Position numbers and translations under genes: made by a program. Positions 1,218 through 61,311 of a stretch of 64,000 nt of DNA are shown here, in pieces. The notes under the pieces are model-generated. The model had not been told where the DNA came from. It saw only the letters and a list, made by a program, of their open reading frames with translations, and ran no database searches. The number at the start of each line of letters is the position of its first letter. Position 1 is the stretch's first letter. The DNA is from Dermacentor variabilis (taxonomy: Eukaryota; Arthropoda; Arachnida; Ixodida; Ixodidae), in the NCBI RefSeq assembly GCF_050947875.1, contig NC_134568.1, positions 200,494,043-200,558,042 of the forward strand. The letters run 5' to 3'.

Positions 1218-1285
1218 AAGATTAATGAGGGGTCTAGCAATTGTCGCAAAATATGGAACAAAACGACGAAAGTACGAGCATAGTC

Positions 1286-2015: not shown

Positions 2016-2174
2016 GAGCGTCCGGCCTAAAGGGCGATCGTTGAAGTCGAAAATATCTCGGTAGGACTATAATACTTGGCAAAGGTCTTCAGCCTGCGCA
2101 GAGGACAAGTCCGTCGGAACCATTTTCTTTATGTTGGGATCGGCGCCCGAGGGTGGCGCGAGAGGCCTGCGAAG

Positions 2175-2883
2175 CTAGCAAGAACCATCGGTTGATAACG
2201 CTACCACATGATGGTCGCCGAGACAATCAACGTTGGCAAGGCAAATACCTTGCGGTAGAATTTGCTTTGCCAATCCAAAGTTAAAGATAGGTATGCGAGT
2301 GCGGTTTGCAGTAATAGTAAGTACAGTGTGAGGCACAGTAACGTTATAATGTAGTGGAATGTCGGGCAGAGGAGTGACGAGGTACTCGCCATCAGGAACT
2401 GGTGGGGAAGACAACAGTTCAATAAAGGCTATTGACTTTGGCGGCAGGCGAAGAAAGCCGGTGGGGCGTAAGCGGCACTGGTGTGCGTTAGAAGGTTCTG
2501 CGAGAATCAGCAACTCAAGGCGAAGGGTACTGGCAGAGCAGTCAATAAGGGCAGAATGCGCGGAGAGAAAGTCGAGGCCCAGAATTAGGCCGTGGGGGCA
2601 ATGAGCAATCACGGTGAAGAGGACAGGAGTGTGGCGGCCGGCGATGCTGACACGTGCCGTACACATGCCGACGATAGACAGTACCGCCATCCGCAACGAG
2701 GACGACGCGTTCCGACGCTGGGGTGAGGAGCTTTTTGAGTCGTCGTCGGAAGGCAGCACTCATAATAGAAAGATGTGCTCCTGTATCGATGAGTGCAGTG
2801 ACAGGATAGCCGTCAACGTCAACGTCAAGAAGGTTTTGGTTCGTAGGTAGCGTGAGCAGAGGATTTGAGGGCAGGGTCGACAA
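2175..2883 (-). pseudogene. Ty3/gypsy retropepsin-like protease, frameshifted
   Basis: Aspartic protease that would cleave the Gag-Pol precursor. The 2542-2883 frame has LDVDVDGYPVTALIDTGAHLSIM, with the canonical DTG active site, followed by FRRRLKKLLTP and VLVADGGTVY. The second half (flap, and the GLDFLSAHSALID segment matching the hydrophobic G-x-D motif) is read from a different frame at 2175-2759. It lies directly between gag and RT. A frameshift makes it a pseudogene. Confidence 0.82.
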
Positions 2884-2933
2884 CGCAGCTTCACCTCCAG
2901 AAGCTGCAGTGCTTAGTTTTCCTGCTGGGTCCG

Positions 2934-4094: not shown

Positions 4095-4277
4095 GGTGAC
4101 AAGCTCGATGTACCGACCACTGCGGAGTTCCGTGGTGAGGACGGGGATCGCTTACCTCCACCAGAATTTACAGGCTATTTACACTGGAACCAGACAGCCA
4201 GACCGACACTCGCCCGCGCCAAGGCACAGACCAGCTTCATCGTCGTTCTCGCGGCGGCTCGTATCTTGAGTATTTCC

Positions 4278-10389: not shown

Positions 10390-11027
10390 TGTTGCGTGCT
10401 CCAGGGTAGCGTACCGTACTGCTGCCGAGAAGTAGCGACGCCTGCCTATCGAAGCTAGACCGACATTACTTATTGGGTAGCGTGGCGTTGTCGGCGGGCT
10501 GCAGGCATCCGGTAGATGATGGCGACCAAGCAGGGGCGAGACGATTTGCTAGTGCGAAACTTGCACTGTTTATTCAAAGGTAGCTGAAAGAAAATAAGAA
10601 GAGCATGAAGTAAGAAGTATAAAGTATGAAGTCTCTCAAAGTACATTTCGGAGCCCCTTAAATAGGCTCTCTACAAGTGTGGGCGGGATCTTGCTTCCGT
10701 CGATGACACGTGACAGGCACGGAGAGAGGGCCCCTCCTCCTGCAATACCGAGCACGGGGAGGAGAAGTCGATCCTCTTTTCGACGAATCCGGGGAGAAGG
10801 TCGGGTGAATGACCTCTCCGGCGCCGTGGGGTCCGGCCAGTAGAGGGTAAGGGCATGACGTATCACCCACGGTGCCACGATCGCGAGAGGTGAAGGGGTT
10901 GAGGTAGCACCCACGGTGCCACGACCATGAAGAGGGTAAGGGGGGACGATCTGTCGCCCGTGGGCTCCGGCCCAGAGGTTAGGGTGAATGACCTGTCGCC
11001 ACGTAGTGTCAGACACCAACCCTAACA
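10390..11027 (-). repeat. 3' LTR of the minus-strand LTR element (638 bp)
   Basis: Begins TGTTGCGTGCTCC and ends CCCTAACA in plus-strand reading, giving TG...CA ends in both orientations. It matches 15120-15757 at constant offset with no length change. On the element's own strand it contains a TATTTAAG box (10658-10665) and an AATAAA signal (10569-10574). The left flank CCGG is repeated after the other LTR. Confidence 0.93.
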
Positions 11028-11564
11028 GCATCTCCGGCGGGGGAGCAAGATCCAGACGTGTAGGGGCCAGCAGCCGCTGTACGAGGGATCGGCGTTTCGG
11101 TATCAGGATTCCCCGTAGAGGTCACGAACCCTTCGTTCGTAGCAGATAGATTCCGGGGAGTGGTCATCCGTCCTCGTGGCGCTCTTGTGACTTTTCTCCT
11201 TGGTCCGGTCCGGTGAAATTGGTCTTTGCAAGCAGGTCTCGCAACTTTTCGTCTCCTGCGTCGGCAAGTAATCACCCCAGAACAGTGCCAGACCCACAAC
11301 CACAAAGCAGCGAGCACAAGGCCACTCTCCCCCAAGACACACCCGGCTTTTAACAAAAAAAGAAAACCCGCTACACCTTTCCCATTTCCTACGCGCGTCC
11401 TCCACCCCTTAACATTAAAAACAGCCATTTCTTGAAAGCGCTAAGACGTGGTTATTAAAATCAGCTAACAATCGGCTTCACTTCGGAAAAACATATGAAT
11501 GCACGAAAAAAATGCCACGGAAACCCGGATGAGCATGAGGCTTTCGATACTCTAGGGGCAACGA
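11028..11564 (-). other. 3' untranslated region of the LTR element
   Basis: About 540 bp between the end of RNase H similarity and the 3' LTR. No envelope-like frame is recognisable. The sequence next to the LTR, read on the element strand, is GCTCCCCCGCCGGAGATGC. This is a C/G-rich tract and does not form a clean polypurine tract. The intact relative has a similar C/G-rich stretch in the same position. Confidence 0.6.
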
Positions 11565-11695
11565 CCTGAACCGTCGGCATTGCCGCTAAGCTTACCCTTC
11601 TTGTAGCGAATATCGAAGCTGTACTGTTGAAGAGCCAAGCTCCAGCGCAAAAGACGACCGTTTTTCGTAGACATGGACTGCAGCCATGTGAGGGC

Positions 11696-14506
11696 TCAGT
11701 GGTCAGTCTCTATGGTGAATCTTGAGCCAGCGATATAGCAAGCTAGCTTCTGTACCGCCCAAACTACGCAGGCGCATTCCTTTTCTGATGCACTGTATGC
11801 TTCCTCACGAACTGAAAGCTTTCTACTGGCATACAGTACAGGATGTTCGTTCTCGTCATCTTTCTTTTGACAGAGCACCACCCCCATACCCCTGTCACTG
11901 GCATCACAATGAAGAATGAATGGCTTAGAGGAGTCGGGCGCGTTCAACACTGGCTGACTCGTTAGTGCGTTCTTCAGCATACTAAAAGCCTTTTCTTTTG
12001 CGTCATCCCACTTTACCGTTTGTTGTTCTGTTTTTCTGAGAGCATCCGTTAAAGGACTCGCAATCTCGGAATACCGCGGAATATATCTTTGGTAATAACC
12101 CGCCAAGCCAAGGAATGATCTGATGTACCGCTTGGTGCGTGGTTGCGGGAAGTTGTCTATCGCGGTCAGTTTAACCTCGGAAGGCCGACGATGGCCTTGC
12201 CCTATTACATGACCTAGATAAGCTACCTCCGCGCGCCCTAATTGGCATTTGGGAGCCTTAACAGTTAAGTTGGCCTCTCGTAGCCGACACAACACGGTTC
12301 GCATGTGTTGCATATGGTCCGCCCATGACGAAGAAAAGATAGCTATGTCATCGAGATAGGGAAGTGCAAAGTTCTCCATTCCTCGTAGCACCTGGTCCAT
12401 AAGGCTAGAGAAGCAATATGGCGCATTCTTCAATCCAAAACTCAGGACTTTCGGACGAAAGGTTCCCATCGGGGAAATAAACGCTGCAAGCCTGCTTGCC
12501 CTCTCGGTCAATGGAACCTGCCAATACCCTCTGACTAAATCGAGCGTAGAAATGAAATTAGCACTGCTCACTTTCTCAAGCCTTTCGTCGATATGCGGTA
12601 TTGGATAAGTCTGGTCCTTCGTGATTAAATTGAGCCTGCGGTAGTCGATACATGGCCGCGGCTCTTTTTCTGGGACCTCAACCAAGATAAGAGGTGAGGT
12701 ATAATCACTCTCTCCTGGCTCGATTACACCTAGCTCTAACATGTTGATTATTTCAGCGGTCATGACTTCACGTTGACGAGGCGAAACGCGATAAGCTTTC
12801 GAACGAACAGGGTCCGACGAGGTTAACTCGATATCGTGAACGATCGCAGTCGTCCTGCCCGGTGTGTCTGAAATTACGTCTTTAAATTCAAACACGAGTT
12901 CCCTCAGTTCGGCCCTCTGAATGGGATTCAACTCCGCCTGTTCTACTAACTTATCAATGGTCTCGTCAATGTTTTTTGTCTCCGTCACTGCTGGTAACTC
13001 TGGAAAGTCGACAGGCATTTCCTCAGGTTGGTTATTCAAAGAGGGTTTCACGATCATTCGCTTTTCCCCAACTTCAAAGCGTCGCGTGCGAACCGTCCTG
13101 TCATAGTAATGCTCAGCATTGTTTTGTGCTTTACGCATTTCCTGCTCGGCAATCATTGTGGCAGGGCTTATGTTTAACAACTTCCTCCTACATTCTGCCT
13201 CTCGCGACATTTCAGGATCCGCTGCTTTCCTGGTTTTTTCATTAGCTGGCGTACTTTCCGCCTCATCCCCTATAGGGCTATCCTGTTCAGTACTGGTTGA
13301 CGAATCAGCTGTCAAACCTGTTTTCTCCACCACTGGACATTCGTACACTGCCTTGGAACGAGTTAGGGCTTGCACTGTTCCCTCACTAAACCCGATTCCC
13401 GTGCGTCGTAGCAAATCCTCTGATTGGTTAGAAAACAAATATGGATACTGCGGCGGGAGATGTGCCCAGACGGCGGCTTCAAGGTCCAGTACTCCGAAAG
13501 GGCCTTCAATACGAATTTTGGCCACCGGGAGACAAACACTGGGGGCCTCTACGGCTTGCCTTATCGAAGCACATTCCCCCGTGAACTGGCCTGCCTCTAC
13601 GTACGACGGATGCATTACGTCCATTGCGGCTGCCGAGTCGCGAAGCACTCTACACGGTTTGCCGTTTACCACGAGGTCTCGAATGTACGGTTCGAGCAAG
13701 TTCAGATTCTCTGCATTACTACTTAGTGACATCAACACTAGTTTGGGATTTCTGCATCCCACGGAGATATGCCCCGTTTGCCGGCAGTTGTAGCAAACTA
13801 CTGGTTTCTTGGCCTCGAAAGCCTTTTTCTTTTGCTTTTCTGCCCTCTGTTCGGGTGACTCCTTTTCTCCTTCGCTGTGCTCGTCACTACTTTTCCCTGA
13901 ATCTGATCTTTCCTTTGTTTTATACCGACTCGATTTTGACCATCGTTTTGGCTTGTCGGGTCTGCATTTATTCATCTCCTCCTTAGGAGCTTCGCTGCCT
14001 TCGTCCGCACGGCGAGTTACGTACTCCTCAGCGAGATCGGCCGCTCTCGTAACAGTGTCTACGCCTGGCCTCTCCTGAACCCAATACTTGATGTTTACTG
14101 GCAGCCGGCGGTAGAACTGTTCTAAAGCAACGCACTGCATTGTCTTTTCGGCGTCGCCGAGTGCACCCTCTTCTCTGAGCCATTCCTTCAGGTTTACCTC
14201 CAAGGTGTATGCAAAATCTGAGTATGACTCACTGTTGGTCTTCTCGACTTCCCTGAATTTTCGCCTGAATGCTTCCGCTGGTAATCTATACTTTTTAAGC
14301 AGCTTCGTTTTGACTTCATCGAAGTCCTCTGCTTCTTCTTTCCCCATGCGGGCGATAATATCAGCTACCTCACGTGGCAGTAACGTAAGCAAGCGTTGCG
14401 GCCACGTGTTTCTCGCGAATTTTACCTTCTCACACGTGCGCTCAAACTGTAGCAGAAAAAGACCTATGTCCCCTCCTACTGCGTAGGATGCCATCAAGTC
14501 TGTCAT
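11696..14506 (-). pseudogene. Gag-Pol polyprotein lacking integrase: SCAN-like capsid, zinc knuckle, protease, RT, RNase H (936 aa)
   Basis: Residues about 1-170 are the capsid, with the SCAN-like block FRRKFREVEK ... LEQFYRRLPVNIKYWVQERP. The zinc knuckle is CYNCRQTGHISVGC. The protease-like part has VLRDSAAAMDVMHPSY, with DSA where DTG/DSG is usual. The sequence HYYDRTVRTRRFEVGE is the remnant of an integrase C-terminal region. RT follows at once: SDYTSPLILVEVPEKEPRPCID, STLDLVRGYWQV, FGLKNAPYCFS, LPYLDDIAIFS. RNase H has LHCDASDRGMGVVLC and ends at an in-frame stop after ETDH. Homologous sequence (GRLLRWSLALQQYS, NADG) continues past the stop to about 11565. The integrase loss keeps the frame. 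Confidence 0.9.
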
Positions 14507-14557
14507 TCTGCGCTCGCTTTCACGTGCCTCTGTGCTAGGTCTTTCGCTATTTTGTGC

Positions 14558-14839
14558 TTACAGAAGCTCAATCTCTAGGCGCTTCATTTCGAGGTCGCGC
14601 TCTTCCTTGGCCTCACGTGCTGCCCGTTCGCGCTCCTCTTTTTCCTCTAGGCGCTTACGCTCTTCTTTTTCCTCTCTTTCTTTAATGCCCTCTAGGCATT
14701 CCGTCAGTTCCTCGTCGTCTGCCCCGGTCGCTTCGATTGCCTCAATGATCTCCGGCTTTCTCTTTGATTCGGCAATTTGGAGGCCCAACTCTTTGGCCAA
14801 GCTCAACAATTCCGGCTTCTTTAGTGCCTTCAAGTTCAT
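14558..14839 (-). pseudogene. Gag N-terminus: SAP-like helix pair and long coiled coil, cut off by a stop
   Basis: Starts MNLKALKKPELLSLAKELGL and continues with ESKRKPEIIEAIEA, the same paired-helix N-terminus (SAP/LEM-like in appearance) as in the intact relative at 49521. A highly charged Glu/Arg/Lys coiled coil follows (EEKEERKRLEEKEERERAAR). An in-frame TAA follows EIELL. The same frame then continues through AQNSERPSTEARE into the ATG of the 936-residue frame at 14506. A single nonsense codon therefore separates this piece from the rest of Gag-Pol. Confidence 0.8.
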
Positions 14840-15095
14840 GGCTGCCCTTAGTGCTGCTAAACCTTCACTCTATACAACCTTGACGTACTTAAACTTCCGT
14901 CAACGGTTTAAAGAAAAATCACTGCAATGTACTTTCCAAAAAATACGTAAAAGCCAAGTGATATCTCAGTGAAGAAAAGCCGTGCACTCACCATATGCAG
15001 TCATGATCCAGACACCTTCCTTCCGAACGTTGTTGCCAGGACGAAGAGGCTACGATCTCGTAGTTGTCGTCGAAGTTGGGGTCTCCAGGATTCCG
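14840..15095 (-). other. 5' untranslated leader of the LTR element
   Basis: About 260 bp between the primer site and the gag ATG at 14839. No frame is recognised. The leader is shorter than in the plus-strand relative, and no tandem copies of the primer-site sequence are visible here. Confidence 0.55.
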
Positions 15096-15116
15096 TATCC
15101 CAATCGCTGCCAGCCA
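15096..15116 (-). promoter_or_regulatory. Primer binding site, tRNA-Leu-like
   Basis: Three bases inside the 5' LTR the minus strand reads TGGCTGGCAGCGATTGGGAT. It begins with TGG (complement of CCA) and resembles the complement of the 3' end of eukaryotic tRNA-Leu (TGGTGGCAGCGGTGGGATT, from memory), with a few differences. The element at 48.4 kb has TGGTTGGCAGCGGTGAGAT at the corresponding place, which supports the assignment. Confidence 0.65.
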
Positions 15117-15119
15117 GTT

Positions 15120-15757
15120 TGTTGCGTACTCCAGGGTAGCGTACCGTACTGCTGCCGAGAAGTAGCGACGCCTGCCTATCGAAGCTCGACCGACATTACT
15201 TATTGGGTAGCGTGGCGTTGCCGGCGGGCTGTAGGCATCCGGTAGATCTTGGCGACCAAGCAGGGGCGAGACGATTTGCTAGTGCGAAACTTGCACTGTT
15301 TATTCAAAGGTAGTTGAAAGAAAATAAGAAGAGCATGAAGTAAGAAGTATAAAGTATGAAGTCTCTCAAAGTACATTTCGGAGCCCCTTAAATAGGCTCT
15401 CTACAAGTGTGGGCAGGATCTTGCTTCCGTCGATGACACGTGACAGGCACGGAGAGAGGGCCCCTCCTCCTGCAATACCGAGCACGGGGAGGAGAAGTCG
15501 ATCCTCTTTTCGACGAATCCGGGGAGAAGGTCGGGTGAATGACCTCTCCGGCGCCGTGGGGTCCGGCCAGTAGAGGGTAAGGGCATGACGTATCACCCAC
15601 GATGCCACGACCACGAGAGGTGAAGGGGATGAGGTAGCACCCACGGTGCCACGACCATGTAGAGGGTAAGGGGGGACGATCTGTCGCCCGTGGGCTCCGG
15701 CCCAGAGGGTAGGGTGAATGACCTGTCGCCACGTGGTGTCAGACGCCAACCCTAACA
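15120..15757 (-). repeat. 5' LTR of the minus-strand LTR element (638 bp)
   Basis: Partner of 10390-11027. As the upstream LTR on the minus strand it would drive transcription of the element: TATTTAAG at about 15388-15395 and AATAAA at about 15299-15304 on that strand. It ends against the LINE RNase H sequence after the 4-bp duplication CCGG. Confidence 0.93.
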
Positions 15758-30225: not shown

Positions 30226-31585
30226 TCAAAGTGGCCGCTTTTTGAAGTCGCGCACATATCTGAGGACGTGTGACTGCCGAAGTCCAGACACAGATGTCGT
30301 CAGCGTATATTGAAATTTTGATGGTAGTAGGCAAGTATTAGCAAGTCCAACAAGAGCGAGGTTGAATAGCGTCGGGCTGAGAGCACCGCCTTGAGGAACG
30401 CCCCTGCTGGTATAGCGTCGCGTAGTTGGGCCATCGTCAGTTAACACATAGAATGATCTTGCAGATAGGTAACTTGCAATCCACAAAAAAAAAAACTCGA
30501 ACACCTAGGCCAACCGTCGCAAGAGCGTCGAGAATGGCCTCATGTAATAGGTTATCGTATGCCCCTTTCACATATAAGAATAAAGCTGCAGATAAACGCT
30601 TAAGGGACCTTTCGTGCTGGACATATGAAACGAGATCAACTACATTGTCGATGGAAGAGCGGTCACGTCGGAAACCAGCCATGGAAATCGGATAAATCTT
30701 GTAGTATTCAAGGTACCATTCCAGGCCGCCAAGGATCATCCGTTCCATTAGCTTTCCTACACAGCTGGCCAGCGCTGTTGGGCGGTAAGAGGTGAGTTCT
30801 AATGGGGATTTGCCCTGCTTTAAGAGTGGCACCAGGAGGCTTACTTTCCATTCGTCAGGAACATTTCCCTGCTGCCATAAGGATTTGTAAAGGCTCAACA
30901 ATTCTATCCGTGCGGACTCTCCGAGATAGCACAAGGTCCGGTATGGTATACCATCCGGACCCGGAGATGATGAGCGCCTGCAGAGAGCTAGAGCCGCTTC
31001 GAGCTCCTTCATTGTAAAAGGAAGGTTCATGCGGCGATCACGGGAATAGGAGACGTCACCTCGGGCTGGAGGATTTGGACGAGTCGCTTGGTCTGCGATC
31101 CGCGCACAAAAGTCTTCTGCGACATCGATGTATTGCCGCCCTTGGAAAAGCGCTAGCGCCTTGAATGGAAAACGCCGTTCCGGAAGGCAACGCAGACCTT
31201 GCACCGTTTTCCAAATGCGAGACAGTGGCTTGCGGGGGTCGAGTGTCTGGCAAAACGTTGCCCAACGTTCCAACGCTAATCTATCCATACGACGCTGAAT
31301 CTTCTTTTGCATCCTCCTGGCTGCCCTAAGGTCATGAATCGATTTTGTGCGCCGATATCGACGTTCCGCCCGGCGACGAAGCGCTCGAAGTCGCTCTAAT
31401 TCTATGTCGAAGTCATTTCGCGTGGAAGAGATCGTCATCATGCGAGTGGCGTTTTGCATCGTAATTTTAATCGTTTGCTCTAACCCAGGTGGTAGGCCCT
31501 CGCGGCAGGCATCTTCCATCTCAGATTTGAAGTTGGCCCATTGAATCGTCCGAATGGTACTCCGTGGGCCTGATCTAGACGACAA
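30226..31585 (-). pseudogene. LINE ORF2 reverse transcriptase, catalytic residue changed and frameshifted
   Basis: RT fingers and palm: RRSSSPGPDGIPYRTLCYL, DEWKVSLLVPLLKQGKSPLEL, SYRPTALASCVGKLMERMIL, GFRRDRSSIDNVVDLVSYV. The motif A region reads LFLYVKGAYDN where LFLDVKGAYD is expected, so the first catalytic aspartate is replaced by tyrosine. At the A11 run near 30485 the frame shifts. The continuation (30226-30504) has ASYLSARSFYVLTDDGP and SRGVPQGGALSPTLFNLALVG. The IYADDICVW box with both aspartates is intact in yet another frame near 30290-30310. Confidence 0.85.
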
Positions 31586-31596
31586 GCCTTTGATGT

Positions 31597-32286
31597 TCAG
31601 ATAGGTGGGAATGTGGTCACTCCAATGTGTCTCAATGTCTGGAAACCACTTCGCGCATCTGCGAGAGAGTTGGAGACGAAAGCAAGGTAGAGGCAGCTGC
31701 CGTATGTCACCCCTCGAAGAAAGGTGGGGCTACCATCGTTCAGTAGAGTAAGGTCATAGTTGTGGGCGATGCTTGCTAATCTTCGTCCTCTTGCATTTGT
31801 CATTGTACTTCCCCATGCGGGATGGTGTGCACTGAAATCTCCTATGATGACCCATGGGGCGGGACAAACACTCAAGATATCCGCAAATCTTTTGGTATCG
31901 AAATTCCTGGAAGGCGATATATACACGCCTATGAGAGTAAACAAGAGTTTGTTCTTTTTAACTGTGATGCATATATATTGATTGTCGTCGTGGGGCGCAC
32001 TTGGTTGCAAAACATAGGTGAGTTCACGACGAACAAAAATGACTGTTTTGCTGCGTTCACCATTTGTGGATGACATGATAAATTCGTATCCTGACAGTCT
32101 TATTGGTTTCGACAAGTTGGGCTCACAAATGACGATGAGTGGAAACACATTGGTGTACACAAACTGACGAAAATCTGAAATTCGTGATTTTAGCCCCCTG
32201 GCGTTCCACTGGATGACGGACGCTGCCTTGACTTCTTTCCGCAAGGATGGGGTATGGGTAGCCATCTTTCTAGTTGAGGGATGCAA
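31597..32286 (-). pseudogene. LINE ORF2 endonuclease (exonuclease-endonuclease-phosphatase fold)
   Basis: Target-nicking endonuclease. Motifs: VIQWNARGLKSRISDFR at the start, IVICEPNL (catalytic glutamate block), IGDFSAHHPAWGS (DFN-type motif, here DFS), LNDGSPTFLRG and SCLYLAFVSNSL, where the usual pattern is S-x-L-D-L. A tyrosine replaces the aspartate there. The final S-D-H motif (HWSDHIPTYL) is present, but in the next frame, just past a frameshift near 31600. ORF2 begins about 17 bases before ORF1 ends. Confidence 0.83.
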
Positions 32287-48217: not shown

Positions 48218-48368
48218 AGGTTCATTCACACTAGACCAACACGACACCGATTTCGATCTGCCGACTGTCGGTGATAGTATTTTTTCCTTCGTGTCGGCGT
48301 GTCTGTCACACTGTAGCGACGCCGACGATCTGCCGACGGTCGGCGGAGAGCTCGGCGTCGGTAAAGCG
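48218..48368. mobile_element. Palindromic MITE-like element, left half (split by an LTR element)
   Basis: The left arm begins AGGTTCATTCACACTAGACC and continues through CGACACCGATTTCGATCTGC, CGACTGTCGG and TTTTTTCCTTCGTGTCGG. Its inverted partner is at 55239-55332. The element, about 240 bp without the insertion, has arms of about 95 bp that match at roughly 90 percent by eye. No coding sequence. Confidence 0.75.
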
Positions 48369-48518
48369 TGTTGCGTTTCGCCTGCGACACGTGGTTTTGC
48401 CGGCGCGACTGCGGCGGGGCGGCAGACATTTTGGCCCGATCGTCGTCGCCGCAACACTCATCGCCAGGTGTTTCCAGGCGCGACTGCGGCGATGCGACCG
48501 CCTAGGGATCATCCTCGC

Positions 48519-48686
48519 ATTCCAGTCATTGTGCCCGAAACAGGCGATGCCAAAGCAGGGATCTCATTCCAGTCATTGTGCCCGAAACAGGCGATGCCAA
48601 AGCAGGGATCTCGTTCCAGTCATTGTGCCCGAAACAGGCGATGCCAAAGCAGGGACCATCCTCTCATTACAGTCATTGTGTCCGAC
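48519..48686 (+). repeat. 47-bp tandem repeat inside the LTR U3 region, about 3.5 units
   Basis: The unit begins ATTCCAGTCATTGTGCCCGA and ends GCAGGGATCTC. Units are at 48519-48565, 48566-48612 and 48613-48652, with a diverged partial unit at 48667-48686 (ATTACAGTCATTGTGTCCGA). The same array is in the 3' LTR (54630-54797). Position upstream of the TATA box suggests an enhancer-like array; this is inference. Confidence 0.9.
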
Positions 48687-48829
48687 CGGCAGCGCCACGA
48701 CAGGGTGCTACGAGATCGTGCTCGACATGGTGCTACGGCATCGCTACGACAGTGTGCGTCACCATTAGCCCATTGTACATTCACGTGCTCGTCTTTTGAG
48801 GGGTTCCTTCTTGCCCTCAACTGCGAGAG

Positions 48830-48837
48830 TATAAAAA
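48830..48837 (+). promoter_or_regulatory. TATA box of the LTR promoter
   Basis: TATAAAAA, preceded by CTGCGAGAG. It lies about 110 bases before the AATAAA signal at 48948-48953, giving a plausible U3-R-U5 layout with transcription starting near 48860. Confidence 0.75.
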
Positions 48838-48947
48838 CAGCTGCCCCCGGACGCCAAAAGGAGGGCTCCGATTTCTTCTGTTGAGTGAAGTGCTCTCCCG
48901 TCTCTCTACTACGGTCAAACCTGACCGCCAACTCTTTGCGATGTTAA

Positions 48948-48953
48948 AATAAA
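48948..48953 (+). terminator. Polyadenylation signal AATAAA in the LTR
   Basis: AATAAA followed by a GT-rich stretch (CAAGTTGTTTCGTTGTT), as expected downstream of a poly(A) site. The copy in the 3' LTR (55059-55064) would be the one that ends element transcripts. Confidence 0.7.
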
Positions 48954-49126
48954 CAAGTTGTTTCGTTGTTACCAGTCGACTCATGCTTTGCCGGGACCTT
49001 CGGATGCTTCCAGTTGTACCCCAGGCCGCCAGGCCAACGCTACCCTTGGGGCTTGCGACCCAGGTACAACCACGGGCGTCAGCGCCGAGTTCCCAACAGA
49101 TCGTACCAGAAGTCCGATCCCAAACA

Positions 49127-49230
49127 TCTGGTTGGCAGCGGTGAGATCGCCTCCGACTTCAAACATGAGGTTGGCAGCGGTGAGATCGCCTCCGACTTCA
49201 AACAACTGTCTGCCAGCGGTGAGATCGCGA
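49127..49230 (+). promoter_or_regulatory. tRNA-Leu-like primer binding site within a 39-bp tandem repeat
   Basis: Two bases after the LTR the sequence TGGTTGGCAGCGGTGAGAT (49129-49147) resembles the complement of a tRNA-Leu 3' end. The 39-bp unit holding it (49127-49165) is repeated at 49166-49204 as GAGGTTGGCAGCGGTGAGAT, and partly again from 49205 as GTCTGCCAGCGGTGAGATCG. Only the first copy keeps a full TGG next to the LTR. The minus-strand relative has a similar primer site at 15096-15116. Confidence 0.7.
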
Positions 49231-49520
49231 CAACGGAGGCCAGCAGCGAAGAGATGCAGTTGACTGTATGCTGAGCAGCTCAACGACGATCCGGGAGCAG
49301 TGCAACGAGCCCTGTGTGACGACTGGTTGCCTGCAGCGGAACGACTGCGCGGAATTCCTGCCTGCGAGGTTTGGTGAGTGCGGGACTTTCTTCTTCTGAG
49401 CTTTGCCAGGCTTTTTGTTAGTGTCAGAAACAGAGCTGGTAATTGTGGTTGTCGTTGCTGCCGGGTTAGTTTGCGGCAAGACAATAGTAAGCAGTAGAGA
49501 AAGCAGCATTCAGAGCAGCC
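49231..49520 (+). other. Untranslated leader between primer site and gag-pol
   Basis: About 290 bp with no supported frame. The ATG at 49521 lies in the context AGAGCAGCCATGG, which is favourable for eukaryotic initiation. Confidence 0.6.
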
Positions 49521-52500
49521 ATGGATTTGAAGTCGTTGCGCAAACCGAAATTGTTGGAGCTTGCAAGAGAGTTGGGTCTGGATGTCTCGGACAAACTCAG
49601 AAAACCAGAACTGATAAAGGCTATTCTTGAGTTAGAGGCTGAGGATGACGAGCTGTCGGAATGCCTTGAGACCATTGAAGAGAGGGAGACTGCAAAAAGA
49701 CAGGAGCGCGAACTTAAAGAGCAAAAAGAAAAAGAAGAGCGTGAACGTAAAGAACAGAAAGAGCGAGAGCAACAAGAGCGTGACCGTCAACACGCTTTGG
49801 AAATGAAGCGTCTTGAGGTAGAGATGGAACGCGCTCGTAATGGAAGTCAGGCACACGGTGCAGGAGAACGCGTATTGTTCAAAATGACGGACCTGATGCG
49901 GCCGTTTAAGCTTGGAGAGGACATTGGTTTGTTCCTGGTTAACTTTGAGCGAACGTGCGAGAAGCAGGGGTTCTCTCGGGAAACGTGGCCACAGCGCTTG
50001 CTCACTTTGTTACCCGGCGAGGCGGCCGACGTAGTCGCTCGCTTGGATAGAGAGGAGGCAGAGGATTTCGACACAGTGAAATCGAGTCTTCTAAAAAAGT
50101 ACCGGCTGTCTGCGGAGGCGTTCCGTCGGAAGTTTCGGGAAAATGAGAAAGGCAAAAGTGAGTCATATACAGAGTTTGCGTATAGGCTTATGTCGAACAT
50201 GCAGGAGTGGCTCAAAGAAGAGAAAGCGTTTGGTGACCACGATAAAGTTCTGCAGTGCTTCGGGCTAGAACAGTTTTATAGTCGGTTACCGGAGAACGTG
50301 CGATACTGGGTCTTGGATAGGCCAGACGTGAGTACGGTGGCTAGAGCCGCTGAGCTAGCCGAGGAGTTTGTGACGCGCCGAGCTCGCGGAGCTAAGGACG
50401 GTCAAAAGGGTGAATTTGGCTCCAAGTTTGAGAGGCCAAAGTTCACACCCATGAGATTAAAGGGGGACACGCGTAGTGCGGATGCGAGCGAAAGCAGTCC
50501 GACCAAACGTAAAGAGACGGCGGCAGCCAAACGCAGAAAGCGGTTCGAGATGAGGCGAGCGCGCTTGTGTTATACGTGCCAGAAGCCGGGTCACTTTTCG
50601 GCGCAGTGTCCGGAAACAACACCAAAAGTTGTGTTTTTTTCAATAGGCAGCACTGACGAGAACATGAAGCTTCTCGAGCCTTACATGCGAGACCTCCTCG
50701 TGAACGGGAAAGAGTGCCGAGTGCTTCGCGATTCCGCAGCTACGATGGATGTAGTTCACCCATCTTACGTAGAACCCCATATGTTCACGGGCGAGTGCGC
50801 GTGGATCAGGCAAGCCGTGGAAGCTCATAGCGTGTGTCTGCCGGTAGCAAAAGTGCTTATTGAAGGACCTTTCGGAGCGCTTGAGACGGAGGCGGCAGTG
50901 TCATCTATGCTGCCACCCCAGTACCCGTACCTATTTTCAAACAGGTCCGATCACCTCCTGCGCGAGAAGGGGCTTTTGTTTGGTGAAGCTAGTGTTCAGG
51001 CCTTAACCAGATCGAAGGTTCGGGAGCTCGCTGCAAAGGCGGTAGTTGCGGGGCCGACGTTATCAAACATCGAAAAAGGGTCAGAGGCGCAGCAAGCTGA
51101 TATTCAGAGCACGCCCGAACTGAATAAACTAGAGTCTGTAACGTTAAAGGCGCCAGATACTGGAGAGGAAACGCCCGACACGGGAAAGTTAGAAGAGCTA
51201 TCTACTGATTTGCTCATCGCGCCTACGTCAGACGGACTTGATAGGTTGCTAAAAGTCAGCCGGTCGGCTTTGATAGCCGAGCAAAAAAAGGATGGCAGCC
51301 TGGAAAACATACGCTGCAATGTCAAAGAAGGTATCGCCAGGAAAACTGCGCGTTTTGTGGAAAGAGGTGGAGTCCTGTACCGGAAGTATCTAGACCGAAG
51401 AGGAGTGGAGTTCGATCAGCTGGTCGTGCCTCAATGCTATCGTCAGGATCTGTTGCGCTTGTCACATGGGGGTTCGTGGTCCGGACACCTAGGAGTTAAG
51501 AAAACTAAGGACCGTCTCTTGCAAGAGTACTATTGGCCAGGGTGTTTTCGGGACGCAGACCATTTCGTGAGGACATGTGACACTTGTCAGCGGGTGGGCA
51601 AACCAGGGGACAAATCGAGGGCGCCGTTGAAATTGGTACCTATCATTACGGAGCCTTTTAGACGGCTCGTTATTGATACTGTGGGACCTCTGCCGGTAAC
51701 AGCCACGGGGTACAGACACATTTTGACTGTGATCTGCCCAGCGACAAAGTTCCCTGAAGCAGTGCCGCTTAAAGAACTCAGCTCAGTTGAGATAGTTAAT
51801 GCACTACTGTCCATATTTGCGCGAGTTGGTTTTCCTGCGGAAATCCAATCAGATCAGGGCACAGTGTTTACTAGCGCTTTGACGACAACTTTTCTCGAAA
51901 GGTGTGGGGTAAAGCTGTTACACAGCTCAGTGTACCACCCACAGTCGAATTCCGTTGAGAAGCTCCACTCCGTCATGAAGCGCGTGTTGAGAGCGTTGTG
52001 TTTTGAACATCGAACTGACTGGGAGCTGTGTCTGCCTGGGGTGATGTTTGCTTTAAGGACCGCGCCGCATGCGGCTACGGGGTTTTCGCCAGCTGAACTG
52101 GTGTACGGTCGCTCGCTTCGATCTCCGCTTCGCATGCTTCGAGAATCATGGGAAGGTAGGGGCGACGACCCAGTCGTGGTGGAGTACGTACTTAAGCTCC
52201 TCGAACGCTTAAGAAGGGCACAGGAGTTGTCAGGTGAAGCAATGACAAAGGCCCAGCAGAGGGCCAAGGTTTATTATGATCGGACAGCCAGGGCCCGTCG
52301 TTTTGAGGTTGGCGATGAGGTCATGATATTGCGCACATCGCTAAACAACAAACTAGACGTGCAGTGGGAGGGCCCAGCACGAATTGTTCAGAAACTGTCG
52401 GACGTTAACTACGTGGTAAGTCTGCCAGGAAAGCGGAAAGCACAGCAAGTTTACCACTGTAATCTGCTCAAACCTTATAGACAAAGGGAAGCAGTGGTGT

Positions 52501-53993
52501 GCATGATGATAAACGTTCCTGAAGAGCTTCCGGTCGAGCTTCCAGGACTAGGCTCAGTGACGAACAGGGAAGACACCGGTCAAGTCATTAGTGACCTTAT
52601 CAGTAAAGCGCCGCTGTCGCCTGAGCAGAAAACCGAACTACACCAGCTATTACAAGAGTTTCAAGGTCTGTTCTCTGAGAGGCCTGGTAGGACTTCTGTA
52701 CTTACTCATGATATAGAACTTACCTCCCCAGAGCCAGTACGATCCAAGGCGTATCGGGTGTCACCCCGCCAGAGCGATATTATGGAGGCTGAGGTAAAGA
52801 AAATGCTACAGCTCGGTGTTATTGAGGCAGGTGAGAGTGATTATACCTCCCCTTTGATTTTAGTTGAGGTACCGGGCAAGGAACCTCGTCCTTGCGTCGA
52901 CTACCGCAGGCTTAATTCCATCACTAAGGATCAAATTTATCCGATCCCTAACATCGAGGAGCGCCTTGAGAAAGTTAGTAGCGCTCAGTTTATTTCCACC
53001 CTAGATCTTGTCAGGGGTTATTGGCAGGTTCCACTTACAGAAGAGGCTAGTAGGTATGCGGCGTTCATTTCACCAATGGGAACATTCCGTCCTAAAGTGT
53101 TGAGTTTTGGTTTGAAGAACGCGCCATACTGTTTTTCAAGCCTCATGGATAAAGTGTTGCGGGGACAGCAAGAATTCGCTTTACCGTATCTAGACGACGT
53201 AGCGATATTCTCCGCATCCTGGTCTGAGCATATGACACACTTGCGGGCAGTGCTAACCCGCCTGCGCGAAGCAGGCTTGACAGTAAAGGCTCCTAAGTGC
53301 CAGTTAGCACAGGCCGAGGTTGTCTACCTCGGTCACGTGATTGGTCAGGGTCGTCGCCGCCCCTCTGAAATAAAAGTGGCCGCTGTGCGAGACTTTCCGC
53401 AACCGCGCACAAAGACCGATATTCGGTCGTTCTTAGGTGTCGCCGGCTACTATCAGAGGTACATCCCTAGGTACTCTGATATCGCGGCTCCCCTGACGGA
53501 TGCTCTAAGAAAGACAGAGCCTCAAACAGTCGTCTGGGACGAGACCAAGGAAAGAGCTTTTAGCGCCCTAAAGAGTGCCCTAACAAGCCAGCCTGTGCTA
53601 CGATCGCCAGACTATACAAAAGGGTTCATTGTTCAGTGCGATGCTAGTGAGCGAGGCATGGGCGTTGTACTGTGCCAACGGGAAAATGGAGAAGTAGAAC
53701 ACCCCGTCCTGTATGCTAGTCGTAAGCTGACCAGTCGTGAGCAGGCGTATAGCGCCACCGAGAAAGAGTGTGCATGTCTCGTGTGGGCCGTTCAGAAATT
53801 GTCATGCTATCTAGCCGGCTCGAGGTTTATCATTGAGACGGATCACTGCCCTCTCCAATGGCTGCAGACCATCTCTCCCAAAAATGGCCGCCTCCTGCGC
53901 TGGAGCCTCGCTTTACAACAATATTCCTTTGAGGTGCGTTACAAAAAGGGGAGTCTCAACGGTAACGCCGATGGCTTAAGTCGAAGCCCCTAA
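49521..53993 (+). CDS. Gag-Pol polyprotein, order capsid / zinc knuckle / protease / integrase / RT / RNase H (1490 aa)
   Basis: A single intact frame. Residues 1-35 form a SAP-like helix pair (LRKPKLLELARELGL), and 42-110 a charged coiled coil. A SCAN-like capsid lies at about 197-282 (FRRKFRENEK ... LEQFYSRLPENVRYWVLDRP). The knuckle is CYTCQKPGHFSAQC (350-363). The protease-like motif is RDSAATMDV (Asp404). Integrase has an HHCC finger (H649 to C686/C689) and core D719, D778, E813 (SDQGT; HPQSNSVEKLH), then a C-terminal domain with RRFEVGDEVMIL and a CNLLKPY ending. RT has STLDLVRGYWQ (D1162), FGLKNAPYCFS and YLDD (1225-1226). RNase H has CDASERGMG (D1374), ATEKECACLVW and ETDHCPLQW, ending with NADGLSR. 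The start follows the SAP-like N-terminus shared with the 14839 relative. An intact frame and matching LTRs suggest recent activity. Confidence 0.96.
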   Translation: MDLKSLRKPKLLELARELGLDVSDKLRKPELIKAILELEAEDDELSECLETIEERETAKRQERELKEQKEKEERERKEQKEREQQERDRQHALEMKRLEVEMERARNGSQAHGAGERVLFKMTDLMRPFKLGEDIGLFLVNFERTCEKQGFSRETWPQRLLTLLPGEAADVVARLDREEAEDFDTVKSSLLKKYRLSAEAFRRKFRENEKGKSESYTEFAYRLMSNMQEWLKEEKAFGDHDKVLQCFGLEQFYSRLPENVRYWVLDRPDVSTVARAAELAEEFVTRRARGAKDGQKGEFGSKFERPKFTPMRLKGDTRSADASESSPTKRKETAAAKRRKRFEMRRARLCYTCQKPGHFSAQCPETTPKVVFFSIGSTDENMKLLEPYMRDLLVNGKECRVLRDSAATMDVVHPSYVEPHMFTGECAWIRQAVEAHSVCLPVAKVLIEGPFGALETEAAVSSMLPPQYPYLFSNRSDHLLREKGLLFGEASVQALTRSKVRELAAKAVVAGPTLSNIEKGSEAQQADIQSTPELNKLESVTLKAPDTGEETPDTGKLEELSTDLLIAPTSDGLDRLLKVSRSALIAEQKKDGSLENIRCNVKEGIARKTARFVERGGVLYRKYLDRRGVEFDQLVVPQCYRQDLLRLSHGGSWSGHLGVKKTKDRLLQEYYWPGCFRDADHFVRTCDTCQRVGKPGDKSRAPLKLVPIITEPFRRLVIDTVGPLPVTATGYRHILTVICPATKFPEAVPLKELSSVEIVNALLSIFARVGFPAEIQSDQGTVFTSALTTTFLERCGVKLLHSSVYHPQSNSVEKLHSVMKRVLRALCFEHRTDWELCLPGVMFALRTAPHAATGFSPAELVYGRSLRSPLRMLRESWEGRGDDPVVVEYVLKLLERLRRAQELSGEAMTKAQQRAKVYYDRTARARRFEVGDEVMILRTSLNNKLDVQWEGPARIVQKLSDVNYVVSLPGKRKAQQVYHCNLLKPYRQREAVVCMMINVPEELPVELPGLGSVTNREDTGQVISDLISKAPLSPEQKTELHQLLQEFQGLFSERPGRTSVLTHDIELTSPEPVRSKAYRVSPRQSDIMEAEVKKMLQLGVIEAGESDYTSPLILVEVPGKEPRPCVDYRRLNSITKDQIYPIPNIEERLEKVSSAQFISTLDLVRGYWQVPLTEEASRYAAFISPMGTFRPKVLSFGLKNAPYCFSSLMDKVLRGQQEFALPYLDDVAIFSASWSEHMTHLRAVLTRLREAGLTVKAPKCQLAQAEVVYLGHVIGQGRRRPSEIKVAAVRDFPQPRTKTDIRSFLGVAGYYQRYIPRYSDIAAPLTDALRKTEPQTVVWDETKERAFSALKSALTSQPVLRSPDYTKGFIVQCDASERGMGVVLCQRENGEVEHPVLYASRKLTSREQAYSATEKECACLVWAVQKLSCYLAGSRFIIETDHCPLQWLQTISPKNGRLLRWSLALQQYSFEVRYKKGSLNGNADGLSRSP

Positions 53994-54479
53994 CGTAGGA
54001 ATCAGCCTGAAAATTGTTTGTTACTGATGTTTTTCTTCCTGAGGCAGGATTTTTTTTTAACATATTGCTTTTGTTTAGTGTTTCAAAGTGATGATATGCT
54101 TTCTAGTGCAATTTTTCAATTTGTGGACGCGTTCTGAGTGATGCTAGACTACTGTAAGGAACTAGGCAGTGGTATAAAAAGGGGAAAGAGCCTGGCAGGG
54201 CTTAGTGAGGGTTGTGCCGTGCTTGCTGACTGAGCGGTTGAGTTTCAGCGTAGTTCTAACGCTTGCCGGGAACGAGAACAAAAATGTGAACTCTCCCGAA
54301 GTCACTTTGCAGTGTCCCGTGCGAACCTGAACGAGAGAACGAGGCCTTCTCTGTGCGCTGCGCTCAAGAAACGTCGAGGGACGCCCGACTTCGGTTATGA
54401 GCATCATCGAGCGACATCCCTCCGGACAGCGGATGCAGTCCCCTGTCCATCGGGATCTCCTTCCCCCGGCGGGGCGGTC
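53994..54479 (+). other. 3' untranslated region before the 3' LTR
   Basis: About 490 bp. No envelope-like frame. The last 20 bases before the LTR are CTTCCCCCGGCGGGGCGGTC, which is C/G-rich. A purine run AAAAAGGGGAAAGAG lies about 300 bp upstream (near 54176-54190) and might act as an internal purine primer, but it is not at the LTR edge. Confidence 0.55.
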
Positions 54480-55237
54480 TGTTGCGTTTCGCCTGCGACA
54501 CGTGGTTTTGCCGGCGCGACTGCGGCGGGGCGGCAGACATTTTGGCCCGATCGTCGTCGCCGCAACACTCATCGCCAGGTGTTTCCAGGCGCGACTGCGG
54601 CGATGCGACCGCCTAGGGATCATCCTCGCATTCCAGTCATTGTGCCCGAAACAGGCGATGCCAAAGCAGGGATCTCATTCCAGTCATTGTGCCCGAAACA
54701 GGCGATGCCAAAGCAGGGATCTCGTTCCAGTCATTGTGCCCGAAACAGGCGATGCCAAAGCAGGGACCATCCTCTCATTACAGTCATTGTGTCCGACCGG
54801 CAGCGCCACGACAGGGTGCTACGAGATCGTGCTCGACATGGTGCTACGGCATCGCTACGACAGTGTGCGTCACCATTAGCACATTGTACATTCACGTGCT
54901 CGTCTTTTGAGGGGTTCCTTCTTGCCCTCAACTGCGAGAGTATAAAAACAGCTGCCCCCGGACGCCAAAAGGAGGGCTCCGATTTCTTCTGTTGAGTGAA
55001 GTGCTCTCCCGTCTCTCTACTACGGTCAAACCTGACCGCCAACTCTTTGCGATGTTAAAATAAACAAGTTGTTTCGTTGTTACCAGTCGACTCATGCTTT
55101 GCCGGGACCTTCGGATGCTTCCAGTTGTACCCCAGGCCGCCAGGCCAACGCTACCCTTGGGGCTTGCGACCCAGGTACAACCACGGGCGTCAGCGCCGAG
55201 TTCCCAACAGATCGTACCAGAAGTCCGATCCCAAACA
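54480..55237 (+). repeat. 3' LTR (758 bp)
   Basis: Identical to 48369-49126 except for one substitution by hand comparison (ATTAGCACATTG here, ATTAGCCCATTG in the 5' LTR). TATA box at 54941-54948 and AATAAA at 55059-55064. Followed by the target duplication AGCG. Confidence 0.97.
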
Positions 55238-55332
55238 AGCGTGACAGAGGCACCGACACGAAGGAAAAAACGCTGTCGCCGACAGTCGGCAGATCGAAAT
55301 CGGTGTCACGTTGGTCTAGTGTGAATGAGCCT
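55238..55332. mobile_element. Palindromic MITE-like element, right half
   Basis: The reverse complement reads AGGCTCATTCACACTAGACC, then GACACCGATTTCGATCTGCC, GACTGTCGGC and TTTTTTCCTTCGTGTCGG, matching the left half at 48218-48311. It begins with AGCG, the duplicated target of the LTR insertion. Confidence 0.75.
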
Positions 55333-59469: not shown

Positions 59470-61311
59470 TCAGAATACGCGGCTAAGAGCTTCGCTGACG
59501 CCAGGAACATATGGGACGCCAGCGCGTTTCATGCACGACTTGCCTTGAGACGGCTGTGGATGGAGGACCCGGGCTTCCAATTTGTCAATAAACTTCTTGG
59601 GGTACCCGTTCCTGGATAATTCGTGACGAATTTTCTTTAGTTCGTTCTGCATTTCGTGGTCATTTGAGCAGATGCGTGTGGCCCGCGTCACGAGAGATGA
59701 GACAACCGATTGCTTATGGCAAGCCGGGTGGCATGAATTGAAGTTTAAGTACTGGCCGGTATGAGTCGCCTTCCTGTGCACGGCAAATGAGAGCCTCGTT
59801 CCGCTTCGCCGCACGAGGACGTCAAGGAAGGGGTGGCTGTTGTCGCACTCGTATTCTGTGGTAAATTGTATGGCTGCGTCTGCTGAGTTGAGAAGTCGTA
59901 GGAGGCGTGAAGCGTCCGGCTTTCGCACAATGCAAAAACAGTCGTCTACGTAGCGGACGAAAACCTTCGGCGCGGGAGCGAAGTTAGTGAGGGCCTTCTG
60001 TTCAATGACTTCCATGACCAAGTTAGCGGTAGTAACGGAAATGGAAGCACCCATGGCAGTTCCGTTAATCTGCCTGTAAAACTGTTTGTTGTAAGTGAAG
60101 TAGGTGTTGCTCAAACAGAAGTCTAAAAGCTCGCAAATGTCCTCTACTTCCAAAGGGGTGCGCTCAGCGAGCGTGTCGTCCGCCAGCAGGACATCTCTGC
60201 ACGTAGCTACGGCCAGGTCAACAGGCACTGAAGTGAAGAGCGACTTCACGTCAAATGACACCATAATGTCGTCTTCATCCAGGGAGATGTCGCGCACTTT
60301 CTCCACGAAGGCTGAAGAATTTGAAATGTGCGTCGCTGTCTTGCCGGTGAGCGGGCCCAGCACTTGGTGTAGGTAACCTGATAACCGGTGCAGCGGTGAC
60401 CTTGTAAAGTCTACAATAGGCCGTAGTGGAACACCTGGCTTGTGAACTTTCGGTAGTCCGTATATTGCAGGTGCGGACCCGTTAGTACACAAGAGGCGAT
60501 GGTAGAGATGCTTTTGCTGCGGTGGAACAAATTTAAAAACCTTCGAGAGGAGCTTCTGCAGTTTTGTTTGCAGGTTGACCGTCGGGTCTTTCTGGATCGC
60601 GACGTACGTATCCTCGTCTGATAGCAAATCCTTCATTTTCTCATTGTAGTCACTTCTGTCGAGCAACACGATGGCATTTCCCTTATCTGCAGGAAGGATG
60701 GCAATGGAGTCATTGTTCCGGAGGCCCTCGACGGCTTGTTTCTCGGCAGGTGAAAATCGGGCTTGAGGGTTGCGCGTCCGCCACTTTGAAAGAACACCAA
60801 TGGCGCGGGTGCGAGCTTCTTCTCTTACTTCGGAAGGAAGTTGAGTGACGGCGCGTTCCACGGTGCAGATTACTCTAGCTGGGTTGGGTGACGCGCCAGT
60901 GTTGAAGTTCAAGCCCTTGCGCAGAAGAGCAGCTTCAGATTCAGTAGGCTTGTAGGAGGATAAGTTGAGGATGACTTCCCTGGTTTGCGTGGGTTCCTTC
61001 GGCCTAAGAGCGTCAAGCTTACTTTCTTGCGACTTCCTGCACTGGCGGTCTCTTAATGTCACCATGAAATTTGCATGAAGCTGTACGTCCGGGAAGTCCT
61101 GAAGAATGGTGTGTTCTAGCTGGCGCCTTTCGAAGAACGTTTCCGTTTCCAAATCCTTGATTTTCTGTCGGCATTCTTGAACCCTTGCTGCCAATAATTT
61201 CCTCTCGGCTTGTCGAATTATCTTGTGGCCCCACGCTGATGCAACCGGTGTCTTCAAGCGCAGACTTTTTGGGACAAGGCCTTCCACTTTGCACGTCTGG
61301 TTGAAGGACAT
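59470..61311 (-). CDS. Penelope-like reverse transcriptase (613 aa)
   Basis: Telomerase-related RT of Penelope-like elements. The N-terminal 230 residues include the helical region and KGNAIVLLDRSDYNEKM, IAILPADKG. RT core: AIYGLPKVHKPGVPLRPIVD, then DDIMVSFDVKSLFTSVPVD (motif A aspartate), NGTAMGASISVTTANLVME, FVRYVDDCFCIV (YVDD, catalytic pair) and NSHPFLDVLVRRSGTRLSF, then HPACHKQSVVSSLVTRA and YPKKFIDKL. The ATG at 61311 (MSFNQTCKVEG) is the first strong candidate. The upstream frame is open but has no motif. It ends at a TGA (59470-59472). The endonuclease is in the same frame beyond it. Confidence 0.93.
   Translation of the reverse strand: MSFNQTCKVEGLVPKSLRLKTPVASAWGHKIIRQAERKLLAARVQECRQKIKDLETETFFERRQLEHTILQDFPDVQLHANFMVTLRDRQCRKSQESKLDALRPKEPTQTREVILNLSSYKPTESEAALLRKGLNFNTGASPNPARVICTVERAVTQLPSEVREEARTRAIGVLSKWRTRNPQARFSPAEKQAVEGLRNNDSIAILPADKGNAIVLLDRSDYNEKMKDLLSDEDTYVAIQKDPTVNLQTKLQKLLSKVFKFVPPQQKHLYHRLLCTNGSAPAIYGLPKVHKPGVPLRPIVDFTRSPLHRLSGYLHQVLGPLTGKTATHISNSSAFVEKVRDISLDEDDIMVSFDVKSLFTSVPVDLAVATCRDVLLADDTLAERTPLEVEDICELLDFCLSNTYFTYNKQFYRQINGTAMGASISVTTANLVMEVIEQKALTNFAPAPKVFVRYVDDCFCIVRKPDASRLLRLLNSADAAIQFTTEYECDNSHPFLDVLVRRSGTRLSFAVHRKATHTGQYLNFNSCHPACHKQSVVSSLVTRATRICSNDHEMQNELKKIRHELSRNGYPKKFIDKLEARVLHPQPSQGKSCMKRAGVPYVPGVSEALSRVF

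What the first reader, a model, noticed from the sequence alone, without database searches (positions are those of the whole stretch)
48369..55237. Intact Ty3/gypsy-type retrotransposon with a Ty1/copia-like domain order (integrase before RT) in a tick-like genome
Seen: a single 1490-codon frame in which the integrase (HHCC finger near residue 649, D719/D778/E813) lies between protease (Asp404) and RT (YLDD at 1225-1226), with RNase H last. Known: Ty3/gypsy elements normally have integrase last; the Gmr1-like group (Goodwin and Poulter) has the copia-like order and was described mainly from deuterostomes. Inference: this is an arthropod member or sister lineage of Gmr1 and may be undescribed.
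Basis: partly seen in the sequence, partly recalled or inferred. Interest (0 to 1): 0.9.

Follow-up and report, generated by a model that had tools for sequence, protein, structure and literature searches.

The report
Gmr1-like retrotransposon in a tick
An intact jumping gene in what looks like tick DNA carries its integrase before its reverse transcriptase, the rare gene order of the known Gmr1-like group; it belongs to an arthropod branch of that group in which a few relatives have lost the integrase cleanly and kept the rest.

Summary
48369-55237 is a complete LTR element: two 758-bp LTRs with one mismatch, a 4-bp target duplication, and one 1490-codon frame with gag (SCAN, CCHC), protease, integrase, RT and RNase H in that order. 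It is Gmr1-like Ty3/gypsy, not a one-off: 174 of 181 retrieved proteins holding both domains have integrase upstream of RT. RT and integrase trees agree on an arthropod lineage (ticks, spiders, one beetle; 100/100 in both). Its integrase is DD34E in 30 of 30 rows, against spacing 35 in 15 of 15 other Gmr1-like rows. Arthropod Gmr1-like elements are already in print from decapods; the searches made listed none from ticks or spiders.

With an Amblyomma americanum group and an unnamed 1050-aa frame it instead points to integrase-less derivatives that may be mobilised in trans (inferred). E1 is a new member of a known kind; the derivatives are the less ordinary part.

The parts
48369..49126 (+). 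5' LTR of E1 (758 bp), with TATAAAA at about 48830 and AATAAA at about 48948
   Evidence: promoter and polyA motifs read by eye
54480..55237 (+). 3' LTR of E1 (758 bp, one mismatch to the 5' LTR)
48365..48368 (.). target-site duplication AGCG, left copy (right copy 55238-55241)
49129..49147 (+). candidate primer-binding site (TGGTTGGCAGCGG...), tRNA not identified
   Evidence: by eye; ARAGORN found no tRNA gene in the window
49521..53993 (+). single gag-pol frame, 1490 codons
50115..50381 (+). SCAN domain in Gag
   Evidence: Pfam PF02023, E 1.7e-14
50565..50615 (+). CCHC zinc knuckle
   Evidence: Pfam PF00098, E 2.2e-06
50724..50741 (+). protease active-site motif LRDSAA (Asp404)
   Evidence: no Pfam hit for protease
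51426..51599 (+). integrase HHCC zinc finger
   Evidence: Pfam PF17921, E 2.8e-18; residues
51648..51941 (+). integrase core matched by Pfam rve (D719, D778; E813 lies just beyond the match, at 51957-51959)
   Evidence: Pfam PF00665, E 1.5e-10
52371..52475 (+). integrase C-terminal (p58_C) domain
   Evidence: Pfam PF22938, E 1.1e-10
52878..53342 (+). reverse transcriptase (YLDD at 53187-53198)
   Evidence: Pfam PF00078, E 1.6e-29
53610..53924 (+). RNase H
   Evidence: Pfam PF17917, E 1.9e-36
51192..52528 (+). GAAGAGCT at 51192-51199 and 52521-52528, on either side of the integrase; place of the 1329-bp in-frame loss inferred for the A. americanum integrase-less group
10390..15757 (-). copy 2: integrase-less relative; LTRs 15120-15757 and 10390-11027 (638 bp, 16 mismatches), target duplication CCGG
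11555..14839 (-). copy 2 coding frame, 1095 codons, no frameshift, nonsense codons at codons 94 and 1048; integrase finger and core absent, part of the C-terminal region left
48218..48312 (+). left arm of the foldback element into which E1 inserted (right arm 55238-55332, 88% complementary)

Best explanation
E1 is a recently inserted, coding-intact LTR retrotransposon of the Gmr1-like group of Ty3/gypsy elements in a tick genome. It probably works as other Ty3/gypsy elements do: an LTR-driven transcript, one Gag-PR-INT-RT-RH polyprotein cut by its protease, reverse transcription in particles, and integration by a DD34E integrase that leaves a 4-bp duplication. The integrase-before-RT order comes from one old rearrangement shared with fish, turtle and urchin relatives. 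Because integrase lies between two linkers, it can drop out in frame without harming protease or RT; copy 2 in this window and at least one unnamed relative (P0124) have done so in DNA, an A. americanum group probably too, and they would need integrase from a full element. Shown: anatomy, order, phylogeny, absence of integrase in copy 2's DNA. Inferred: activity, processing, supply of integrase in trans.
For: Anatomy. Order in relatives: 117 of the 120 listed hits of the first search have both domains, and integrase is upstream in all 117; over the three searches 174 of 181. RT-RH tree: integrase-upstream rows one clade against eight conventional-order outgroups, 100/100, arthropod lineage 100/100. 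Integrase tree: same clade against seven, 100/99, arthropod lineage 100/100. Spacing 34 in 30 of 30 arthropod-lineage rows, 35 in 15 of 15 other Gmr1-like rows. SCAN in Gag fits the published derivation of SCAN from Gmr1-like Gag (PMC3424704, passage). RT closest in PDB to Ty3 (4ol8, 1.8e-71). Recent insertion: 1 mismatch in 758.
Against: The named Gmr1 reference was not in hand, so membership rests on vertebrate elements with the same order, not on the type. No Pfam protease hit, and the motif is D-S-A rather than D-S/T-G, so protease activity is assumed. No clear polypurine tract before the 3' LTR (by eye). Three of 7 outgroup rows also have spacing 34, so it does not by itself define the lineage. 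The outgroups were found by similarity to the query and are few. Many rows in the arthropod clade are unnamed contigs of unknown host.
Confidence: 0.93

Rival explanations
1. A one-off rearrangement or chimera of two elements in this genome.
Against: Same order in 174 of 181 proteins with both domains; RT and integrase trees agree.
Confidence: 0.01
2. A Ty1/copia element, with the usual copia order.
For: Domain order alone.
Against: Ty3 is the best PDB match of RT-RNase H; Pfam RVT_1 and RT_RNaseH, H2C2 and p58_C were matched and no copia RT family was listed up to E 1.
Confidence: 0.01
3. The arthropod lineage reached the copia-like order independently of the Gmr1 group.
For: A long stem (0.72 in RT, 0.94 in integrase) and a different catalytic spacing.
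Against: Integrase-upstream rows form one clade against the conventional ones in both trees; but the outgroup is small (7 proteins, plus Ty3 in RT) and was found by similarity to window queries.
Confidence: 0.05
4. Copy 2 lost its integrase by ordinary genomic deletion after insertion; it is a dead copy with no bearing on mobility.
For: A single copy; two nonsense codons; among the 120 listed hits no other protein with its junctions was noticed.
Against: The 1095-codon frame has no frameshift and the two losses both keep frame; its 2 nonsense codons equal the 1.45-2.02 expected from neutral change since insertion at LTR divergence 16/638, as if the frame was open without integrase when it inserted.
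Confidence: 0.4
5. The database integrase-less proteins are annotation introns or real splicing, not DNA loss.
For: P0127 of Rhipicephalus looks like P0021 with integrase and the RT start skipped. Annotated models also skip RT (P0101, P0265, P0275), so skipping is not special to integrase. In turtles 36 of 38 motif-matched models share one junction and the two that keep integrase sequence there join at the same serine, which would fit an AG|C splice.
Against: For P0052/P0075 the junction falls on GAAGAGCT, present at both ends in E1, with no GT-AG there. P0124 (1050 aa) lies on a 4,221-bp contig: its coding plus the about 420 codons missing against P0021 would not fit. Copy 2 is DNA.
Confidence: 0.25

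Closest known systems
Gmr1-like Ty3/gypsy elements of vertebrates and other deuterostomes (Goodwin and Poulter 2002; recalled, and cited in PMC3587641)
   Same: Ty3-type RT, integrase upstream of RT, SCAN-related Gag; vertebrate and urchin elements of this order share the clade in both trees
   Different: E1's lineage has spacing 34 instead of 35 between the last two catalytic acids, a D-S-A protease motif in many tick rows, and 42-45% identity to fish, turtle and urchin rows
Gmr1-like elements of decapod crustaceans (GyRex4, Gychoro2, GyMaja1, GyLiva4; PMC3587641, passages)
   Same: arthropod host, Gmr1-related
   Different: in the passages seen, GyRex4 is known from RT/RH and GyRex5 from integrase, not as a full element; sequences not in hand, not compared here
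A. americanum hypothetical protein V5799_014060 (P0004)
   Same: same family, 96% identical over 92% of the query, same order
   Different: the annotated protein ends within RNase H
Ty3/gypsy remnant at 2-4151 (-) of this window
   Same: Ty3-type RT, about 35% identical to E1 in RT
   Different: conventional order, integrase after RNase H; decayed

Membership tests
Gmr1-like Ty3/gypsy | Ty3/gypsy-type RT-RNase H | tested here: met
Gmr1-like Ty3/gypsy | integrase upstream of RT in pol | tested here: met
Gmr1-like Ty3/gypsy | clade with vertebrate elements of the same order in RT and integrase trees | tested here: met
Gmr1-like Ty3/gypsy | clade with the Gmr1 type element itself | not testable with these tools
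   no sequence named Gmr1 was among the listed hits
Gmr1-like Ty3/gypsy | SCAN-related capsid | tested here: met
   E 1.7e-14; relation to Gmr1-like Gag from PMC3424704 (passage)
Ty1/copia | integrase before RT | tested here: met
Ty1/copia | copia-type RT | tested here: not met
   RT matches Ty3 and Pfam RVT_1; no copia RT family listed
Conventional Ty3/gypsy (Mag, CsRn1 and others) | integrase after RNase H | tested here: not met
LTR retrotransposon, autonomous | paired LTRs, target duplication, open gag-pol with catalytic residues | tested here: met
   the protease motif is D-S-A
LTR retrotransposon, autonomous | transcription and new insertions | not tested
   no RNA or population data

The most novel reading that the evidence does not exclude
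In Gmr1-like elements the integrase is a removable cassette. It has been lost in frame several times in ticks, at least once by microhomology between the linkers on either side, giving elements with gag, protease, RT and RNase H that amplify on integrase supplied by full-length relatives; in turtles the same cassette may be removed by splicing, so that one element could make products with and without integrase.
Probability: 0.3. Interest if true: 0.65.

Novelty: new member of a known kind. Interest (0 to 1): 0.42.

Why it matters
Named hits in six tick and four spider genera suggest the Gmr1-like group is widespread in chelicerates, so the copia-like order in Ty3/gypsy is broader than the deuterostome picture, with a simple marker (34 against 35 residues between the last two catalytic acids). 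If the integrase-less derivatives move in trans, they would be a natural test of which Pol parts an LTR element must carry itself, made possible by this gene order.

Tried and rejected
Second window copy as support for the order: rejected, no integrase. P0127 as a DNA-level loss: rejected, it looks like P0021 with a skip that also removes the start of RT. The turtle integrase-less models as DNA losses: left open, because P0192 keeps integrase sequence and is 99.4% identical to P0181 over the 506 residues that start at the junction. Spacing 34 as unique to the lineage: rejected, 3 of 7 outgroup rows share it. A regular-expression count of the spacing placed only 14 of 52 rows and was replaced by an alignment count. 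The protease-motif count (36 D-S-A-A among 145 protease matches) is also by regular expression: it gave no motif for 12, and a wrong place in P0124, whose sequence reads RDSAATM. Two IMG/VR scans for E1 relatives gave no locus. The window's own genome could not be searched: the service did not answer. Not examined further: annotated models without an integrase core match but with its C-terminal region (P0141, P0142, P0151, P0162, P0250, P0269) and P0252.
Full report
What is there. The window holds a complete LTR element (E1) at 48369-55237. Its LTRs are 758 bp and differ at one base; the flanks repeat AGCG; the inner part holds one 1490-codon frame at 49521-53993. The element sits in a foldback repeat whose arms, 48218-48312 and 55238-55332, are 88% complementary. 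Pfam, run on four pieces, gives a Rho_N (SAP-like) start, SCAN and CCHC in Gag, then the H2C2 finger, rve core and p58_C domain of integrase, then RT and RNase H. Catalytic residues are present: Asp404, H649/H656/C686/C689, D719/D778/E813, YLDD at 1223-1226. No envelope gene is apparent: the frames of 100 codons or more listed after 53993 overlap the 3' LTR or lie on the other strand. There is no Pfam protease match; protease is assigned from the D-S-A motif at the place where relatives read D-T-G or D-S-G.

Is the order real and shared? A protein search with the integrase-to-RNase H piece found 790 proteins (E up to 1e-10), of which the best 120 were listed. In 117 of the 120 both domains were found by BLAST, with integrase upstream in all 117; two lacked integrase and one lacked RT. 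Two further searches, each listing the best 120, brought the set to 291 proteins; of the 181 with both domains 174 have integrase upstream and 7 downstream. Those 7 served as outgroups, with Ty3 (integrase after RT in chain 7q5b) added to the RT tree. Named hosts placed in the E1 lineage by the trees are ticks (Amblyomma, Haemaphysalis, Ixodes, Ornithodoros, Rhipicephalus), spiders (Argiope, Araneus, Oedothorax) and the beetle Onthophagus taurus; Trichonephila and Hyalomma are added by similarity only. Best match: A. americanum, 96%.

Trees. From the 291 proteins I chose 57 for an RT-RNase H tree, plus E1, copy 2 and Ty3 (60 rows), and 51 plus E1 for an integrase tree (52 rows). Integrase-upstream rows (with the integrase-less ones in the RT tree) are one clade against the outgroups, 100/100 in RT and 100/99 in integrase. 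Within it the arthropod lineage is supported 100/100 in both, apart from fish, turtle and urchin rows and from two rows I labelled sponge; that label is my reading of the gene-id form, not a name given by the call. The order of branches outside the arthropod lineage differs between the trees at weak support. The spacing between the last two catalytic acids is 34 in 30 of 30 rows of that lineage and 35 in the other 15 integrase-upstream rows (one, Lytechinus, reads E for the D); of the 7 outgroups 3 have 34 and 4 have 35. Unnamed rows (lgn, ena, jgi) have unknown hosts, so 'arthropod' rests on the named rows.

The second copy. At 10390-15757 (-) lies a relative about 70% identical to E1 in RT-RNase H DNA, with 638-bp LTRs (16 mismatches) and a CCGG duplication. 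It has no integrase core: tblastn with E1 residues 630-890 finds there only a 12-residue match at E 8.9, while its RT-RNase H is 74% and its gag-protease 54% identical to E1 in protein. Two losses, after IAEQ and after SLNN, leave part of the integrase C-terminal region; both keep the frame. The 1095-codon frame has two nonsense codons and no frameshift. From the LTR divergence 1.45-2.02 nonsense codons are expected since insertion under neutral change, so the frame was plausibly open, without integrase, when it inserted. A loss after insertion is not excluded.

Other integrase-less relatives. In A. americanum, P0052 (33-kb contig, a cluster of 5 member sequences) and P0075 (398-kb contig) share the junction GKLEEL/PVELPG. 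E1 carries GAAGAGCT at both places, 1329 bp apart and in frame, as expected for a loss between short repeats; the joint does not fit GT-AG. In the flanks P0052 and P0075 share four residues against E1 and P0004; one site goes the other way, joining P0075 with P0004, and none joins P0052 with P0004. P0125 (228-kb contig) has a similar but shorter joint; in the counted sites it does not share residues with P0052 or P0075 alone and shares one with P0004, so it may not be of the same group. P0124, 1050 aa on a 4,221-bp contig of source 'ena', lacks integrase with a different left edge; the contig is too short to hold its coding plus the some 420 codons missing against P0021. The right edges of these losses lie at the linker just before RT. 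P0075 and P0125 look like gene models with other skips, so DNA is needed. Annotated models that skip RT also occur (P0101, P0265, P0275), so in annotated genomes a missing integrase alone proves little. Among lgn, ena and jgi proteins listed, P0124 is the only one with gag, protease, RT and RNase H matches and no integrase match, which speaks against such elements being common.

Turtles. One search shows 41 turtle models of 917-1169 aa with RT and RNase H, and gag or protease, but no integrase match. A motif search matched 36 of these 41, all with one junction (one of them, Gopherus, with small differences), and two further turtle models (P0192, P0279) that continue instead from integrase sequence at the same serine; 5 of the 41 were not matched and not checked. 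P0192 is 99.4% identical to P0181 from that point on. Splicing or an annotation intron is the simpler reading; the question stays open without DNA.

Comparison with what is known. Gmr1-like elements are described as Gypsy elements with integrase upstream of RT (PMC3587641, PMC6238403, PMC2774666; passages). They are reported from decapods as the first in protostomes and from an annelid. The Ixodes scapularis genome paper lists Mag, CsRn1, Squirrel and Toxo among Ty3/gypsy (PMC4748124, passages); Gmr1 is not named in the passages seen, though Ixodes proteins of this lineage are. Searches for Gmr1 with tick or arthropod (any two of four terms, 30 of 14,921 seen), Ixodes (4 of 4; one was a false match) and spider (10 of 25 seen), and for integrase-less LTR elements (20 of 727 seen, 11 of 11), listed no paper on either subject by title; most subscription papers are not held.

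Verdict. E1 is a well-preserved new member of the Gmr1-like group. The order is real, shared and old. The integrase-less relatives are the part worth following.

Noticed in passing
2-4151 (-): Decayed Ty3/gypsy remnant with conventional order (gag-like frame, protease DTGA, RT, RNase H, then integrase), an in-window contrast to E1.
   Followed up: partly
10390-15757 (-): Integrase-less relative of E1 with paired LTRs and target duplication, frame kept across two losses.
   Followed up: yes
50724-50741: Protease motif D-S-A-A instead of D-S/T-G-A; 36 of 145 protease matches have it by regular expression, and the 12 of those 36 that were printed are close to the window's element.
   Followed up: partly
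48218-48312 and 55238-55332: E1 inserted into a foldback element with 95-bp arms.
   Followed up: no
49113-49229: Three tandem 39-bp units covering the LTR end and the candidate primer-binding site.
   Followed up: no
48488-48685: Tandem duplication of about 100 bp inside the LTR, about 82% identical.
   Followed up: no
30437-32286 (-) and 59470-61311 (-): Probably non-LTR ORFs: endonuclease and RT pieces, and a 613-aa frame with RVT_1.
   Followed up: no
P0080 and P0170: Proteins labelled as from archaeal MAGs (Nitrososphaeraceae, Asgard) have the Gmr1-like order and about 50% identity to the query; probably contaminating contigs.
   Followed up: no
P0015 and P0023: Ixodes and Haemaphysalis integrases 91.2% identical over 260 residues, close for such distant hosts; possible horizontal transfer, untested.
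   Followed up: no
P0178-P0222: 41 turtle gene models of this group without integrase match, 36 of them matched with one junction.
   Followed up: partly
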